NCBI GenBank assembly: GCA_020441225.1
Contig: JAGRMP010000432.1
Span: forward strand, 1 to 11,622
Reading direction: 5' to 3'
Origin: Maritimibacter sp.
Lineage (GTDB): Bacteria; Pseudomonadota; Alphaproteobacteria; Rhodobacterales; Rhodobacteraceae
DNA length: 11,622 nt
The notes below the pieces were generated by a model. The model was not told the DNA's origin and did no database searches. It saw only the letters and a list, made by a program, of their open reading frames with translations. The position numbers and the translations under genes were made by a program. This document shows positions 1-11,622 of the stretch, in pieces. How positions within the stretch are numbered: position 1 is the stretch's first letter; every line of letters begins with the position of its first letter.

Positions 1-522
1 GCTTCGGCGAACCTGGTGCTTGGGGAAACCCTGTTCTGGCGGAACAACGAGTGGAGCATCCGGACGACCATCCAGAAGACGCATCTGTCGCGGCCGGAGC
101 CCCTCGTTGCACCACTGCATGCCGACTACGGCAAGTTCATCGACGCCGTGTTGCTTGGAGATATGCCCGAGGAACTCCTACCCGAGATTCGTTCCCGCGC
201 GATCAAACAGCGACGCCAGCTGTTCGTTCTTTACAATGGCAAGCGGACGGGGCCGAGCTACGTCCCGATGATGTTCAAAACGCTCACAGGCAATTCGTTT
301 ACGTCGACCAGGGCGATGATTCACACCGATGGTGCGCGCCATTTCGGCGCGGAAGGGCTCGAGAGAGCCAAGATCGCCTGTCACCAGACCTCGGACGCGG
401 TCGTCAGGCAGCACTACTACCAGGAGGCCGTGGCCGAGGTCTTCGCGAGCAATCTGCGAAACAAACGGCGTGCCCGGCGTGCGGGTATCCTCCGGGCGCA
501 AGAGGTGGGGGAAACGGAGTAG
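1..522 (+). CDS. Probable tyrosine recombinase (integrase), C-terminal part, cut by the window edge
   Basis: The frame is open from base 1, so the real start lies to the left; the GTG at 16 is only the first start-like codon in view. About 173 codons remain. The layout resembles the catalytic domain of phage or ICE-type tyrosine recombinases: a segment with LFVLYNGK, then a KTLTG turn, an arginine/histidine stretch (STRAMIHTDGARHFG), a conserved-looking CHQTSD near where the family's third-box His lies, and a HYY that could supply the nucleophilic tyrosine about ten residues later. The tail is very basic (RNKRRARRAG). The spacing of the boxes is not canonical, so assignment to the family is an inference. 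Such enzymes cut and rejoin DNA at attachment sites. The gene is followed after only 14 bases by a long hairpin, then by a pair of unknown genes on the same strand. Confidence 0.45.
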   Translation, partial: ASANLVLGETLFWRNNEWSIRTTIQKTHLSRPEPLVAPLHADYGKFIDAVLLGDMPEELLPEIRSRAIKQRRQLFVLYNGKRTGPSYVPMMFKTLTGNSFTSTRAMIHTDGARHFGAEGLERAKIACHQTSDAVVRQHYYQEAVAEVFASNLRNKRRARRAGILRAQEVGETE

Positions 523-7478: not shown

Positions 7479-7494
7479 GTTATATCGATATAAC
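7479..7494. promoter_or_regulatory. Perfect 16-bp palindrome, probable TetR operator
   Basis: GTTATATCGATATAAC is an exact palindrome, strikingly AT-rich in a GC-rich region, in the 138-bp gap between the divergent efflux operon and the methyltransferase gene. The length and dyad symmetry are usual for TetR-family operators, and the sequence can overlap a -10 element (TATAAC or TTATAT) in either direction. Binding by the neighbouring TetR protein is inferred. Confidence 0.7.
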
Positions 7495-7514: not shown

Positions 7515-7528
7515 TTGAGAAAAGTCAA
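7515..7528. promoter_or_regulatory. FNR/CRP-family box upstream of the quinone genes
   Basis: TTGAGAAAAGTCAA fits TTGA-N6-TCAA. Against the alphaproteobacterial FnrL-type consensus TTGAY-N4-RTCAA, nine of ten defined positions match; the left half has G in place of Y. Its centre (7521.5) is about 41 bases before a putative start around 7563, and a weak -10-like TGATAG lies at 7549-7554, as in class II activated promoters. The methyltransferase ATG follows at 7586. Activation at low oxygen is inferred. Confidence 0.5.
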
Positions 7529-7585
7529 GTGAGTGGCGAGCGGGTCCTGATAGAGCCGGGACGACCCGAAGCGGCAGGATGGGCA

Positions 7586-8337
7586 ATGGAACGCGCGACC
7601 GATCTCGAACAGATGAAGACGACTTTCGGGGGGCGAGCGGTCTCCGAAGACGAACGTCAAACGGAGGTCACCGGCCTCTTCAACCGGATCGCGCCACGCT
7701 ATGACCTGATGAATGATTTGATGAGCTTCGGCACCCACCGACTATGGAAACGCAAGGTTGTGTCGCGAGCCATCGCACAGTTGGGCGATGTTCCGGGCCC
7801 GGTCGTCGATCTCGCGGGCGGCACCGGCGATCTGGCGCTGGAGTTGCGGCGCTGGTTGCCGGACGACGAGATCATCGTTGCCGACGCCTCCAAGGGATGC
7901 TCGAGGTAGCCCGTGCTCGTGGCGGCGCCGCGCTCCGCTATGTCGAGACACCTGCTGAGACCTTGCCGTTTGGCGACGCAACGGTGGCGATGGTGACCCT
8001 CTCCTTCGGTCTGAGGAACATGACCGACCCTGCTCGCGCCCTGAGCGAAGTCGCCCGGGTGCTGTCACCGGGGGGACATCTGGTGCTGCTCGAGTTCTCC
8101 AAGCCGGCGGCTTGGTTTGCTCCGATCTACGGGCTTCACGCGCGCCACGTGATCCCGCGTATCGGCGCGGCGGTAGCGCGAGACCGCGGCGCCTACACCT
8201 ACCTGGTGGAATCGATCGAGCGGTTTCCCGGGCGGGAAGACATTGCCCGCGAAATCGCGGCGGCCGGTCTGGATCTGGTCGAGGAGCGCGCCTTCGTCTT
8301 CGGTGTGGCGCGCATGCACATCGGGCAGAAGGCATGA
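7586..8337 (+). pseudogene. ubiE: UbiE/MenG-type quinone C-methyltransferase, broken by a single-base frameshift
   Basis: The 5' part (7586-7909) encodes the family's N-terminus: FNRIAPRYDLMNDLMSFGTHRLWK, then SAM-binding motif I VVDLAGGTGDLALEL, then VADASK, and stops at TAG 7907-7909. The 3' part continues in the next frame from the ATG at 7897 (GMLEVARARG), with LSFGLRNMTD, VLSPGGHLVLLEFSKP and YTYLVESIERFPGREDI, all UbiE/MenG signatures. One base is missing in the GGG at 7894-7896; with it restored the protein would be 250 aa, a normal length. These enzymes methylate demethylmenaquinone or a ubiquinone precursor using SAM. The start at 7586 has an AGGAT-type SD. The stop overlaps the MenA gene as ATGA. 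A sequencing error, a true pseudogene or a recoded gene are all possible; as given, each half alone should be inactive. The split leaves a normal ubiE elsewhere in the genome likely. Confidence 0.85.
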
Positions 8338-9221
8338 GCGACGCCGTTTCAGACCCGCGGACCAGGCTCGCCGGCCTGCCTGCGCCCGCGCTCTGGCTGA
8401 TCGCGGCGCGGCTCAAGACCGTGAGCCTCAGCCAGATGCCAGTGCTGGCCGCGGCGTGGCTCGCGGGCGATGGTGTTCGGCTCGACGTGGTGGCCCCGGC
8501 GATGATCGCCACGGCCGCGATACAGATCGGCACGAATCTCTGGAACGATGCCGCGGACGCAGCGCGTGGGGTCGACCGGCCGGACCGCCTCGGTCCGCCC
8601 CGAATGACGGCTCTGGGCCTGCTTGACGGGGCGTCGGTGCGCCGCGGCGCTCTTGCGAGCTTCGCACTTGCCGCGCTCGCGGGGCTCTGGCTGGTCGGGA
8701 TAGGGGGCTGGCCGATCGTGGCCATCGGGCTCATGTCGCTGGCGCTCGGCTATTTCTACTCGATGGGACCGCGGCCGCTGTCCGGCCTGCCGTATGGTGA
8801 GCTGCTTGTCATCGGCTTCTTCGGCGTCGTTGCCGTCTCCGGGTCCGGCTGGCTGATGGGGGTCGATCCGTTTGCGGCCCGCACTCTTGCCACGGGGCTG
8901 ATGATCGGCCTGCCGGCGGCGGCGGTGTTGATGCTCAACAACCACCGCGACCGGGTGCAGGACGCGCGGGCAGGGCGGCGGACGCTGGCGATCGTGATCG
9001 GGCCGACGGCGTCGCAGCTGGTCTATTTCGCGGCCCTTCTCGCGGCGTTCGGCTTCGGTGCGGCGCTGAATGCGACCGTATGGCTCGCAGTGCCGGGCGC
9101 TCTCGCGCTCTGGCTCGGTCACGCGATGTGGCATTGGCCGGTCTCGGTGCGGCTCAACCGGCTCCTGGGGCAGACGGCGGCCTACCAGGCGTTGCTGCTC
9201 CTGTTCGTGGCGCTCGCATGA
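8334..9221 (+). CDS. menA: MenA-type prenyltransferase (UbiA superfamily; 1,4-dihydroxy-2-naphthoate polyprenyltransferase-like)
   Basis: A 295-aa membrane enzyme with about eight hydrophobic helices. It carries both Asp-rich motifs of the UbiA superfamily: NDAADAARGVDRPDRLGPPR (N71, D72, D75) and NNHRDRVQDARAGRRTLA (D206, D210). The wording around these, NDxxDxxxGVDxxxRLGPxRxT, FYSMGPRPLSGLPYGE and NNxRDxxxDxxAGxRTLA, is characteristic of MenA rather than UbiA or the haem/chlorophyll members. The reaction would be transfer of a polyprenyl chain to 1,4-dihydroxy-2-naphthoate at the inner membrane, giving demethylmenaquinone, the substrate of the MenG activity encoded just upstream. The ATG at 8334 overlaps the upstream stop as ATGA. 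No other men gene is in the window, so a different aromatic acceptor remains possible. Confidence 0.8.
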   Translation: MSDAVSDPRTRLAGLPAPALWLIAARLKTVSLSQMPVLAAAWLAGDGVRLDVVAPAMIATAAIQIGTNLWNDAADAARGVDRPDRLGPPRMTALGLLDGASVRRGALASFALAALAGLWLVGIGGWPIVAIGLMSLALGYFYSMGPRPLSGLPYGELLVIGFFGVVAVSGSGWLMGVDPFAARTLATGLMIGLPAAAVLMLNNHRDRVQDARAGRRTLAIVIGPTASQLVYFAALLAAFGFGAALNATVWLAVPGALALWLGHAMWHWPVSVRLNRLLGQTAAYQALLLLFVALA

Positions 9222-9665: not shown

Positions 9666-10493
9666 TCAGGCGTCAGCCCCACGTGCGATCAGCAGGTCCG
9701 TGGGCGGGGTCCGCAGGAGCTCGGCCGTGAACGAGCCGAGACCGGTGAAGGACAGGCTTCGGGTGTTGGCGCCAACGGCGATCAGGTCGGGTGCAAAGCC
9801 CTTGATTTCCTGGTGGCAGCCAGATCCGACCCCGTCATGCACCAAGTCGACTTTGGGGAGCGTCGCGGCAAACCCTTCGGCCCAGGACGCGGCCTGAGCT
9901 GCTGTTTCGCGTTGCACCTCACGCGCGAAGTCCGACGATTGCCCTCCGGTCAGGCCTTCGAACGGCGCCATCCACAGATGGAAGAGGCGGAACGCCGCGT
10001 GGGGGGCAATGGAGAGTGCCGTTTTCACCGCGCGACTACAGGCAGATGAGAACGCGACCGGCGCCAGCACGCGGTCGTAGCTGCCGTGGACCGGATCTGT
10101 GACGAGGAGCACCGGGGTGAGAGAGCGTGCGACCACGCTTTCCACCGTCGTCTGCCGCAGCCCGTCGAGAAGGCCCCGGTCGCGGTGCCGGCCGGCGACC
10201 ACGAGGTCGACCTCGGCGGAATTCACCAGATCGACGAGGCGGGTGATCGGATCGCCGATCTCGACCTGGATATCGTAGGGAACCTCTCCGGCCATGCTCT
10301 GTGCAGACGCCTCGAGATGGGCGCGGCATTTGGCGGCCAGATCCTGCGTCAGGCCCTCCGGAACGCTGTCATCCACGATCGACACCACCCGCACGCGCGC
10401 GCCCAACTCGCCCGCAAGGAGGAAGCCGCGTTGCAGGGCGCGATCCGAACGCGCCGAAAGATCCGTCGCAATCAGAATGGATTTGATCTGCAT
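9666..10493 (-). CDS. Universal stress protein, tandem UspA domains
   Basis: A 275-aa protein made of two UspA-like domains. Domain 1 (about 1-135) starts with IKSILIATDLSARSDRAL and has a degenerate nucleotide-binding loop (GRHRDRGLLDGLRQTTVESV), in which the second glycine of the usual G-2x-G-9x-G(S/T) is replaced by arginine. Domain 2 (about 139-275) starts with YDRVLAPVAFSSACSRAV and keeps the final GS (GANTRSLSFTGLGSFTAELL). The start at 10493 is chosen because GAAGGGG lies 8 bases ahead; an in-frame ATG at 10511 has no SD. Soluble and cytoplasmic, it probably acts as a nucleotide-dependent stress or energy-state factor. It diverges from a P-type ATPase gene, a pairing often found in low-oxygen or starvation regulons of related bacteria. 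Confidence 0.88.
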   Translation of the reverse strand: MQIKSILIATDLSARSDRALQRGFLLAGELGARVRVVSIVDDSVPEGLTQDLAAKCRAHLEASAQSMAGEVPYDIQVEIGDPITRLVDLVNSAEVDLVVAGRHRDRGLLDGLRQTTVESVVARSLTPVLLVTDPVHGSYDRVLAPVAFSSACSRAVKTALSIAPHAAFRLFHLWMAPFEGLTGGQSSDFAREVQRETAAQAASWAEGFAATLPKVDLVHDGVGSGCHQEIKGFAPDLIAVGANTRSLSFTGLGSFTAELLRTPPTDLLIARGADA

Positions 10494-10701
10494 GAGTTGT
10501 GCCCCTTCCATTTTGGCGGCAAGTCCAGTCTTGCGTGCCGACGTAACTTACATTCCATTACCCATGGCGCGGACCTCTGGAGGATCTGCGGCACCTCGAC
10601 GCACATTCGGTCGCGCCCGACCTGAGCGCGAAATCGTGCAAGCATTTCAACGCTGAAGCACGCTCAAGATACGTCCTGTTTTCACGGTTTCACTTGGGGG
10701 C

Positions 10702-10727
10702 GAAGAAGCGATTCTTCAATTCTTGAA
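10702..10727. repeat. Overlapping small inverted repeats in the divergent promoter region
   Basis: GAAGAA-gcga-TTCTTC (10702-10717) overlaps TTCAA-ttc-TTGAA (10715-10727). The two dyads share the TTC at 10715-10717, so only one could form at a time. This AT-richer spot is a candidate operator or promoter element. Confidence 0.4.
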
Positions 10728-11103
10728 CGCCACCAAAACGGCACTACCTGTGGCGAGGAAACAATGTCGGGCCGTGGCCGCGAAGGACATCCGCGAGGGC
10801 CCGGAGGCAGGCGAAGCGATCATGTGCGGCTGGACCAGGGACGGTGCAAAAAACCCACGACGCCCATCGGTCTATTCGGGCCGCTGGTCTCGATCGTGGC
10901 GCCTTCATGGAAAGCGGTGGGCCATATGCGATACGCGCGTGTGACACGGTCGGGGACAATGGCGGTTTCATCGCGGGTTTCGCGCCAGATCTTGACCGCT
11001 GGCCGTCTCCGAACAGGCGTCTGACTTCCGACGGCCCGCCCGTTCGTCTGCATGCATCGCGCGGAACCGGGTCGCGCGCGACCTGGTCCCGAGCTTCAAT
11101 CAT

Positions 11104-11118
11104 GGCGCCATTGGCGCC
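11104..11118. promoter_or_regulatory. 15-bp dyad just ahead of the ATPase ribosome-binding site
   Basis: GGCGCCA-t-TGGCGCC is a perfect 7-bp inverted repeat with one central base. It ends 8 bases before the AAAAGGAG at 11125-11132 that serves the ATPase start. It may be an operator or an mRNA hairpin that affects translation initiation. Confidence 0.4.
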
Positions 11119-11135
11119 GGAAAGAAAAGGAGCGA

Positions 11136-11622
11136 ATGACCCACCCCGATACGGCCCCCCGGTATCACGCCCAACCTGCCCGCGACGCGCTCGACGCGCT
11201 CGACGCCACGACCGCCGGTCTCAGTGCCGAGACCGCCGCCTGCCGCCTGTCGGAGCACGGCCCCAACCGCCTGCCCGAACCGCCGAAGCGGAGCCCGGTG
11301 CTGCGGTTTCTCGCCCATTTCCACAACGTGCTGATCTATGTTCTGCTCGCTTCCGCCCTGGTCACCGCGGCGCTCCAGCACTGGATCGACACCGGCGTGA
11401 TCCTCGCGGTGGTGATCGTAAACGCGGTGATCGGCTTCATTCAGGAGGGGCGGGCCGAACAGGCGATGGCGGCGATCCGGGGCATGCTCGCGCCGCACTC
11501 CGCCGTGCTGCGCGACGGCAAACGCGTCAGCGTCAACGCGGCCGAGCTCGTGCCGGGCGATATCGTGCTCGTCGAAGCGGGCGACCGGGTCCCGGCAGAC
11601 CTGCGGCTCATCGAGGCGCGCG
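11136..11622 (+). CDS. P-type cation-transporting ATPase (P-II, Ca2+/cation type), N-terminal part
   Basis: The first 162 codons of a P-type ATPase that runs off the right edge. A cation-ATPase N-terminal domain is visible at about 15-60 (LSAETAACRLSEHGPNRLPE), two transmembrane helices at about 64-81 (VLIYVLLASALVTAALQ) and 87-103 (GVILAVVIVNAVIGFIQE), and the start of the actuator domain (LVPGDIVLVEAGDRVPADLRL, about 138-158). This arrangement, with no metal-binding domain or CPx helices in front, points to type II pumps for Ca2+, Mg2+ or monovalent cations. The phosphorylation site DKTGT lies beyond the window. The ATG at 11136 follows AAAAGGAG at a rather short 3-base distance. A 9-bp tandem repeat (gacgcgctc, 11184-11201) encodes the ALDALD stretch. 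Confidence 0.92.
   Translation, partial: MTHPDTAPRYHAQPARDALDALDATTAGLSAETAACRLSEHGPNRLPEPPKRSPVLRFLAHFHNVLIYVLLASALVTAALQHWIDTGVILAVVIVNAVIGFIQEGRAEQAMAAIRGMLAPHSAVLRDGKRVSVNAAELVPGDIVLVEAGDRVPADLRLIEAR

What the first reader, a model, noticed from the sequence alone, without database searches (positions are those of the whole stretch)
7515..9221. FNR-box-fronted MenG-MenA module in a probable ubiquinone lineage
Seen: a UbiE/MenG methyltransferase coding region and a MenA-type prenyltransferase joined by an ATGA overlap, with TTGAGAAAAGTCAA 58 bases ahead of the first ATG. Known: MenA and MenG/UbiE perform the last two steps of menaquinone synthesis; most alphaproteobacteria use ubiquinone and FnrL-type regulators control anaerobic genes. 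Inferred: this may be an oxygen-regulated route to a low-potential naphthoquinone, or to another prenylated quinone, carried on an accessory region next to an efflux pump.
Basis: partly seen in the sequence, partly recalled or inferred. Interest (0 to 1): 0.75.

Follow-up and report, generated by a model that had tools for sequence, protein, structure and literature searches.

The report
Menaquinone salvage genes beside N2O reductase
The two genes look like the last steps of vitamin-K-type (menaquinone) synthesis kept by bacteria that seem unable to make the starting compound, and in relatives they travel with a likely importer and with the enzyme that destroys the greenhouse gas nitrous oxide, which suggests that these bacteria borrow the compound from neighbours to breathe without oxygen.

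Summary
The menG-menA pair, its ATGA overlap and the TTGA-N6-TCAA box are real, but the window's menG is frameshifted (7586-7909, then 7903-8337); menA (8334-9221) is intact. The prenyltransferase is MenA-type: over the TIGR00751 cut-off, split from UbiA 100/100 in a tree, only solved relative UBIAD1. No genome is held for the window, so the rest comes from relatives. Most MenA-bearing genomes also have UbiA (over the cut-off in 32 of 37), while MenD (1 of 35), MenB (1 of 33) and MqnA/D (1 of 33, marginal) are nearly all missing: no visible route to dihydroxynaphthoate (DHNA). In relatives menG-menA opens the clade II (Sec-type) nosZ cluster, and a distinct BASS-family transporter closes it or sits by menA. 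In a 248-genome family sample all 5 clade II nosZ genomes carry MenA (7 do in all), and the top 7 BASS hits are those 7 genomes. Best reading: a DHNA-salvage module (importer + MenA + MenG) giving ubiquinone bacteria a menaquinone for anaerobic N2O/nitrate respiration. Partial pathways fed by outside DHNA are known in Gram-positive bacteria; this linkage, lineage and transporter were not found in print. Substrate, product and transport are inferred. The window copy is detached from nos and has a broken menG.

The parts
7515..7528 (.). FNR-type box TTGAGAAAAGTCAA (palindromic half-sites TTGA-N6-TCAA)
   Evidence: Only match in the window, expected 0.09; a TTGA-N6-TCAA box at the same place before menG in 7 relatives and in L002
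7586..7909 (+). menG 5' part (UbiE/MenG methyltransferase, N-terminal about 105 aa); frame ends in a stop
   Evidence: PF01209 63.6 bits; 59-67% identical to the N part of MenG in L001, L003-L006, L008 and L009
7903..8337 (+). menG 3' part in another frame; ends with the TGA of ATGA
   Evidence: PF01209 125 bits, TIGR01934 142.5 bits, under the cut-off of 158.35 for the half alone; groups with module MenG and not with housekeeping UbiE
8334..9221 (+). menA, 1,4-dihydroxy-2-naphthoate prenyltransferase type, 295 aa, intact
   Evidence: TIGR00751 110.8 bits, cut-off 102.15; 543 homologues at E<=1e-3 among the 7999 candidates scored; tree

Best explanation
menG-menA is the enzymatic end of a quinone-precursor salvage module of ubiquinone-making alphaproteobacteria. 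A dedicated BASS-family transporter brings in an aromatic carboxylate, most likely 1,4-dihydroxy-2-naphthoate (DHNA) released by other microbes; MenA attaches a polyprenyl chain with loss of the carboxylate, giving demethylmenaquinone; MenG methylates it to menaquinone. The low-potential quinol feeds anaerobic respiration, above all the clade II (Sec-type) nitrous oxide reductase chain whose cluster encodes NapG/NapH-type proteins and cytochromes c, and in a few genomes other nitrogen-oxide respiration. In one sub-clade, which includes the window, a Crp/Fnr-type site before menG would switch the pair on without oxygen. SHOWN: gene families, absence of DHNA-synthesis families in relatives, linkage and co-occurrence with clade II nosZ and one BASS clade, the conserved box. 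INFERRED: substrate, direction of transport, product, use by NosZ, oxygen control. In the window only menG(broken)-menA is present, so that copy works, if at all, with a housekeeping UbiE doing the methylation.
For: MenA type: TIGR00751 over the cut-off, split from UbiA 100/100, only PDB relative at E<=0.01 UBIAD1. No DHNA route: MenB over the cut-off in 1 of 33 genomes and MenD in 1 of 35, both only in the Myxococcota genome G032; PF02621 in 1 of 33, at 26.3 bits against 26; of 14 control genomes 7, 7 and 4 were over the cut-offs. The strongest sub-cut-off MenB is BadI; the strongest sub-cut-off MenD lies among polysaccharide-type genes by eye. UbiA over the cut-off in 32 of 37. Co-occurrence in 248 family genomes: clade II NosZ 5, MenA 7, all 5 within the 7 (Fisher 2.8e-9, shared ancestry ignored); NosZ below that cut-off in 63, only one (G018) with MenA. 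BASS: 30 of 37 genomes have a hit of 288 bits or more; in the 248 the top 7 hits (309-399 bits, next 219.7) are the 7 MenA genomes, 4 of which did not enter the profile. The MenA-linked BASS form one clade, 100/99, against the 13 best other BASS. Position: in 22 of 23 clade II NosZ genomes the extra MenG is within 3.3 kb of nosZ; BASS is 9.5-12.4 kb from nosZ in all 19 genomes where one contig shows both, on the far side from menG in the 18 where menG is on that contig too. Where clade II nosZ is absent BASS is still next to menA in L016, L018 and L121, one gene from it in L029 and L033, and next to menG-menA in L020. FNR-type box in 8 of 22 plus L002.
Against: No biochemistry. BASS carriers move many organic anions, and the linked ones fall below the BASS subfamily cut-off (138.6, 134 and 121 bits against 326.3). 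The larger DHNA-prenyltransferase models are below their cut-offs for the window MenA (best 168.7 against 264). G010, G011, G017 and G031 have MenA but no BASS of this clade (G011 only 203 bits), and G010, G011 and G017 no NosZ match either. G318 and G444 have MenA without this BASS, and in the class sample only G001 matched clade II NosZ; their MenB/MenD/Mqn were not tested. G024 has menG-menA 5.4 kb from a clade I-like nosZ. 21 of the 33 first loci are from MAGs by their titles, so single absences are weak. NapG/NapH-type proteins are not proof of menaquinol: ubiquinol use is known for E. coli NapGH (recalled), and their role as quinol dehydrogenase is disputed (passages of PMC6195509). 14 of 22 menG loci lack the box. 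The window has no BASS or nos gene and its menG is broken.
Confidence: 0.62

Rival explanations
1. The module makes another prenylated quinone: MenA uses a different imported or home-made hydroxy-aromatic acid (for instance homogentisate or a hydroxybenzoate), and MenG methylates the product to a plastoquinone-like low-potential quinone.
For: No DHNA route in relatives; MenA and homogentisate prenyltransferases both do decarboxylating prenylation (recalled); the MpqE methyl-plastoquinone methyltransferase model hits the MenG halves, at 52.2 and 109.2 bits against a cut-off of 335.
Against: All 11 NCBIfam families that hit the prenyltransferase at E<=1e-3 are MenA-type or unnamed prenyltransferase models; no UbiA or homogentisate model. 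MpqE is far below its cut-off and below the best MenG/UbiE model on each half. A home-made substrate would not explain the BASS clade. No homogentisate prenyltransferase was put in the tree.
Confidence: 0.17
2. DHNA is made inside the cell by unrecognised, non-orthologous enzymes, and BASS has another role in the nos cluster (for instance uptake of a cofactor precursor).
For: Profiles find only known families; BASS relatives such as PanS carry (keto)pantoate (the linked proteins hit the PanS model far below its cut-off).
Against: MenB and MenD of one pathway and the MqnA/MqnD family of the other are missing together in nearly all genomes; MenC, MenE, MenF, MenH and other Mqn enzymes were not searched. 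BASS stays with menA where clade II nosZ is absent.
Confidence: 0.1
3. Functionless or decaying hitch-hiker: menG-menA is carried along with nos genes by linkage and does nothing useful, as the broken window copy suggests.
For: menG broken in the window; no BASS or nos in the window.
Against: menA is intact, with 56 invariant columns over 31 sequences; the pair is kept from Rhodobacterales to Cohaesibacter; MenA-BASS persists without clade II nosZ. True for the window copy at most.
Confidence: 0.07

Closest known systems
Partial menaquinone pathway fed by exogenous DHNA (Streptococcus agalactiae; Lactiplantibacillus plantarum)
   Same: Prenyltransferase step kept, DHNA synthesis missing, DHNA or menaquinone taken from outside for respiration (S. 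agalactiae, passages of PMC8376106) or extracellular electron transfer (L. plantarum, passages of PMC10746273)
   Different: There in Gram-positive bacteria without a ubiquinone pathway of their own (recalled); here in ubiquinone-pathway alphaproteobacteria, beside clade II nosZ, with a BASS-family transporter candidate and an extra MenG
Clade II nos cluster of Wolinella succinogenes (NosG, NosH, NosC1, NosC2, NosB)
   Same: Sec-type NosZ, NosD, NapG- and NapH-type proteins, c-type cytochromes (single members tested); electron transfer from menaquinol to NosZ was predicted there (passages of PMC11102522)
   Different: Wolinella is a menaquinone organism (recalled); here the host has a ubiquinone pathway and the cluster is bracketed by menG-menA and a BASS gene
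MenA (DHNA polyprenyltransferase) of classical pathways
   Same: TIGR00751 over the cut-off, invariant aspartate-rich motifs, tree placement
   Different: No menB/menC neighbours as in Thermomicrobium; found in genomes without MenB and MenD
BASS family (bile acid:sodium symporter, PF01758/TIGR00841)
   Same: SBF domain (one member tested); E 1e-34 to 1e-40 to TIGR00841
   Different: Below the subfamily cut-off; a separate clade tied to MenA; substrate unknown

Membership tests
MenA (TIGR00751) | Score over the curated cut-off | tested here: met
   110.8 against 102.15 bits; other MenA models matched below their cut-offs
MenA (TIGR00751) | Groups with MenA and away from UbiA | tested here: met
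   Split from 12 UbiA rows at 100/100; 5 reference MenA on the same side
MenA (TIGR00751) | Both aspartate-rich prenyl-diphosphate motifs (recalled) | tested here: met
   N68, N71, D72, D75 and D206, D210 invariant in 31 rows
MenA (TIGR00751) | Prenylates DHNA | not testable with these tools
   Needs an enzyme assay
MenG/UbiE (PF01209, TIGR01934) | One intact open frame | tested here: not met
   Frame break close to 7900; intact in relatives
MenG/UbiE (PF01209, TIGR01934) | Family match | tested here: met
   PF01209 over its cut-off on both halves; each half alone is under the TIGR01934 cut-off
Classical menaquinone pathway | MenD and MenB in the genome | tested here: not met
   Relatives only: MenB 1 of 33, MenD 1 of 35, both G032; the window's own genome is not held
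Futalosine pathway | MqnA/MqnD family in the genome | tested here: not met
   Relatives only: PF02621 over the cut-off in 1 of 33, by 0.3 bit
DHNA-salvage partial pathway | MenA present while DHNA synthesis is absent | tested here: met
   In relatives; not testable for the window's genome
DHNA-salvage partial pathway | Exogenous DHNA restores quinone and respiration | not testable with these tools
   Needs cultures
Crp/Fnr regulon | TTGA-N6-TCAA box before the gene, conserved | tested here: met
   8 of 22 loci plus L002, all in the 11-row MenA clade of the window; absent in the other 14
Crp/Fnr regulon | Oxygen-dependent transcription | not testable with these tools
   Needs RNA or reporter data
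Clade II nos cluster | Clade II nosZ beside the pair | tested here: not met
   None in the window, though met in relatives: in 22 of 23 clade II NosZ genomes MenG is within 3.3 kb

The most novel reading that the evidence does not exclude
A group of alphaproteobacteria respires N2O with a quinone it cannot make: a dedicated BASS-type DHNA importer, MenA and MenG are built into the clade II nos cluster, so N2O consumption by these ubiquinone bacteria depends on a precursor cross-fed by menaquinone-making neighbours. It would be a genetically defined DHNA importer of a family not known for this, and a two-quinone respiratory chain acquired by salvage.
Probability: 0.42. Interest if true: 0.9.

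Novelty: new variant of a known kind. Interest (0 to 1): 0.77.

Why it matters
Clade II N2O reducers are a sink for a strong greenhouse gas. If their alphaproteobacterial members need a cross-fed naphthoquinone precursor, N2O removal depends on community composition, pure cultures on defined media would under-report it, and quinone typing of aerobic cultures would miss the second quinone. It also gives a concrete candidate for a DHNA importer and a testable case of a quinone dependency that travels together with a terminal reductase.

Tried and rejected
Rejected: oxygen-regulated de novo menaquinone synthesis (no MenB/MenD/MqnA-D in nearly all relatives). Rejected: functional tie to the RND pump and TetR (no hits in 33 loci). 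Rejected: MenB in G005 (BadI over its cut-off) and MenD in G006 (165.6 bits, below the cut-off, among polysaccharide-type genes by eye) as signs of a pathway. Withdrawn on checking: I first took menG of L002 as broken (and a note); one search shows unread bases (X in the translation) at that spot, so L002 is no evidence of decay, and I lowered the hitch-hiker rival from 0.08 to 0.07. Searched for remnants of nos, PCuAC or BASS in the window: none. tblastn of MenA against plasmids gave 24 records, all under 60% identity. PHROGs gave nothing for four small window ORFs. Structure prediction was not run; MenC, MenE, MenF, MenH and further Mqn enzymes were not searched.

Own errors: one search failed; one search treated minus-strand loci as plus, so a set of housekeeping rows was nonsense, and it is replaced. 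No paper linking menA or ubiE with nosZ in Rhodobacterales was found in these searches, which cover an open-access library only (0 papers; 0; 2, of which PMC11165706 was looked at by passages, with no whole-word menA, and PMC10303372 was seen in the listing only). PMC10653820 and PMC11409646 (passages) held nothing on this beyond a cited reference.

Full report
What is in the window. MenA occupies 8334-9221 (+), 295 aa, and starts inside the stop of the preceding frame (ATGA, 8334-8337). Upstream lies a UbiE/MenG methyltransferase, but its frame is broken: 7586-7909 ends in a stop and the rest continues in another frame to 8337. Both parts match PF01209 over its cut-off. Relatives carry MenG as one frame of about 250 aa, up to 94% identical to the 3' part, so the break is recent or an assembly indel. 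The box TTGAGAAAAGTCAA at 7515-7528 is the only TTGA-N6-TCAA in 11.6 kb (expected 0.09). Around the pair: to the left, on the minus strand, a small membrane protein, TetR, an RND adaptor and an RND permease; to the right a universal stress protein on the minus strand and the start of a P-type ATPase on the plus strand. The right end is 86-87% identical to conjugative plasmids of Frigidibacter and Actibacterium (Frigidibacter record read). No whole genome is held for the window, so statements about genomes below concern relatives.

What the prenyltransferase is. It scores 110.8 bits to TIGR00751 menA (cut-off 102.15); every one of the 11 NCBIfam hits is a MenA-type or unnamed prenyltransferase model, the others below their own cut-offs (best 168.7 against 264). 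In the PDB only UBIAD1 answers to the family profile at E<=0.01 (E 6e-24). In a tree of 50 rows it and 30 relatives fall on the MenA side, away from 12 UbiA sequences of the same genomes, at 100/100.

Relatives. A genome-contig scan gave 33 loci, mostly Rhodobacterales, plus five Cohaesibacter, one other Hyphomicrobiales MAG, four unassigned alphaproteobacterial MAGs, one gammaproteobacterial MAG and one Myxococcota; 12 of the 33 titles carry no MAG mark. menG sits before menA as its neighbour in 23 of the 33. The module MenG forms a group apart from the housekeeping UbiE of the same genomes (77/99; one change in all 200 bootstrap trees; 20 and 30 rows), and 26 of 35 genomes have a second UbiE-type gene. 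UbiA proper is over its cut-off in 32 of 37 genomes searched and split in two pieces in G002 and G007; G026, G032 and G444 lack it. These are, with few exceptions, ubiquinone-pathway bacteria with an added MenA.

No visible way to make DHNA. MenB is over the cut-off in 1 of 33 genomes and MenD in 1 of 35, in both cases the Myxococcota genome G032. The MqnA/MqnD family passes its cut-off in 1 of 33, by 0.3 bit (G029). The strongest near-misses were checked: G005's MenB-like protein is BadI (501.6 bits, cut-off 467.6), and G006's MenD-like protein (165.6 bits, cut-off 244.2) lies among glycosyltransferase- and sugar-type genes by eye. Of the 14 control genomes 7, 7 and 4 were over the cut-offs. 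MAG incompleteness can explain single absences but not the pattern, which includes the 12 records not marked as MAG.

Link to clade II N2O reductase. Next to menG-menA in relatives lie a PCu(A)C copper chaperone, a Sec-type (clade II) NosZ (856 bits to TIGR04246, cut-off 625), cytochromes c, a 411-aa membrane-type protein without a family hit, NosD, a NapG-type protein (below its cut-offs) and a NapH-type protein (235.3 bits, cut-off 213.05); one or two members of each were tested (order). Upstream of the pair in several loci stand cytochrome cd1 nitrite reductase (PF02239, one member), proteins that I read by eye as NorC, NorQ and NorD, and in 13 loci or flanks a Crp/Fnr-type regulator (cluster 6; one member tested). 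Of 35 MenA genomes, 22 have an over-cut-off clade II NosZ and G013 has one in two pieces; in 22 of these 23 the extra MenG is within 3.3 kb of nosZ, and in G019 the two are on different contigs. In G007 menA itself is on another contig. In an even sample of 248 genomes of the Maritimibacter family, MenA occurs in 7 and over-cut-off clade II NosZ in 5; all 5 are among the 7 (Fisher p 2.8e-9, ignoring shared ancestry). Another 63 genomes have a NosZ match below that cut-off and only one of them (G018) has MenA, so the tie is to clade II and not to N2O reduction as such. In a class sample of 385, MenA is in 3 and clade II NosZ in 1; the other two MenA genomes, G318 and G444, are a different setting (the latter 0.9 Mb and AT-rich).

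A transporter that goes with MenA. Reading the cluster to its end in G014 and G001 showed a BASS/SBF gene (family, and for L033). The same kind of gene is directly next to menA in L016, L018 and G270, one gene away in L029 and L033, and before menG-menA in L020. A profile of 8 such proteins gives at least 288 bits in 30 of 37 genomes; G010, G011 (203 bits), G017, G031 (122 bits), G032, G318 and G444 are the misses. BASS lies on the same contig as the extra MenG or nosZ in 20 genomes, and in five more (G016, G018, G029, G033, G270) beside or one gene from menA; in G013, G022, G024, G026 and G028 it is on another contig. Where both can be seen (19 genomes) the nosZ-BASS distance is 9.5-10.0 kb, and 11.8-12.4 kb in the two Cohaesibacter. 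In the 248-genome sample the seven highest hits (399-309 bits) are exactly the seven MenA genomes, followed by a gap to 219.7 (at most 9 candidates were scored per genome). Three of the seven had contributed to the profile; the other four had not. In a tree the 30 linked proteins form one clade against the 13 best other BASS of the sample, 100/99 (the program warned of long branches). In G270 menA and BASS stand on the strand of narH and narI (969 and 258 bits), about 1.3 kb after the last gene of that group.

Mechanism proposed. Import of DHNA by BASS, prenylation by MenA, methylation by MenG (or by the housekeeping UbiE where menG is missing or broken), giving menaquinone for anaerobic electron transfer, chiefly to clade II NosZ. 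The families, absences, linkage and box are shown; substrate, transport direction, product and use are inferred. Precedent for the salvage logic: S. agalactiae lacks DHNA synthesis and needs exogenous DHNA or menaquinone to respire (passages of PMC8376106); L. plantarum lacks the other genes of the pathway, and exogenous DHNA suffices for its extracellular electron transfer (passages of PMC10746273). For the clade II chain, electron transfer from menaquinol to NosZ was predicted in Wolinella (passages of PMC11102522); whether NapGH-type proteins act as quinol dehydrogenases is disputed (passages of PMC6195509).

Regulation. The FNR-type box stands at the same distance before menG in 8 of 22 sequences and in L002; all nine are in the 11-row MenA clade that holds the window (the other two rows have no menG before menA). 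The remaining 14 lack it, so it is a feature of one sub-clade and not of the module. A perfect 14-bp palindrome at 7480-7493 next to it is a candidate TetR operator for the divergent pump genes.

Verdict. The window's pair is a detached copy with a broken menG and, taken alone, ordinary. The relatives make it interesting: a naphthoquinone-finishing pair without a naphthoate pathway, tied to one BASS clade and to clade II N2O reductase. Ten paper searches found no description of this, in an open-access library only. I file it as a new variant of a known kind (DHNA-salvage partial menaquinone pathway).

Noticed in passing
window 7480-7493: Perfect 14-bp palindrome TTATATCGATATAA between the divergent TetR/RND operon and menG: candidate TetR operator.
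   Followed up: no
L002 1-1086: menG of the nearest genome relative (Maritimibacter MAG, MenA 81% identical) is interrupted by unread bases; it has the FNR-type box variant TTGAGTTAAGTCAA at 261.
   Followed up: yes
L121 8443-18928: In G270 menA and BASS stand on the strand of a nitrate reductase operon (NarH and NarI confirmed; NarG, NarJ and a PpiC-like gene by eye), without clade II nosZ or an extra menG.
   Followed up: partly
L007 7166-7867, L010 7406-7906, L119: In L007 and L010 menA follows an Rrf2-type regulator (RirA/NsrR models, below cut-offs; only L010 tested); in G007 menG, clade II nosZ and BASS are on another contig than menA.
   Followed up: partly
L115 1480-2376: A 0.9 Mb AT-rich genome of the class sample (G444) carries a MenA (164.6 bits to TIGR00751) beside PlsY and dihydroorotase, with no UbiA hit: perhaps a symbiont with a quinone dependency of its own.
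   Followed up: partly
L024: Aliiroseovarius crassostreae has menG-menA 5.4 kb from a clade I-like nosZ, with BASS on another contig: a possible swap of the reductase.
   Followed up: no
L031 and genome G031: A gammaproteobacterial MAG has this MenA, a second UbiE-type gene and a NosZ fragment at a contig end (243.6 bits over 147 positions), but no BASS of the clade.
   Followed up: no
window 9666-11622: Universal stress protein and P-type ATPase stretch 86-87% identical to conjugative plasmids of Frigidibacter mobilis and Actibacterium: the window may be plasmid-borne.
   Followed up: partly
window 1-522: Left-end ORF without a family match; 27-38% identical to hypothetical proteins on three Rhodobacteraceae-type plasmids.
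   Followed up: partly
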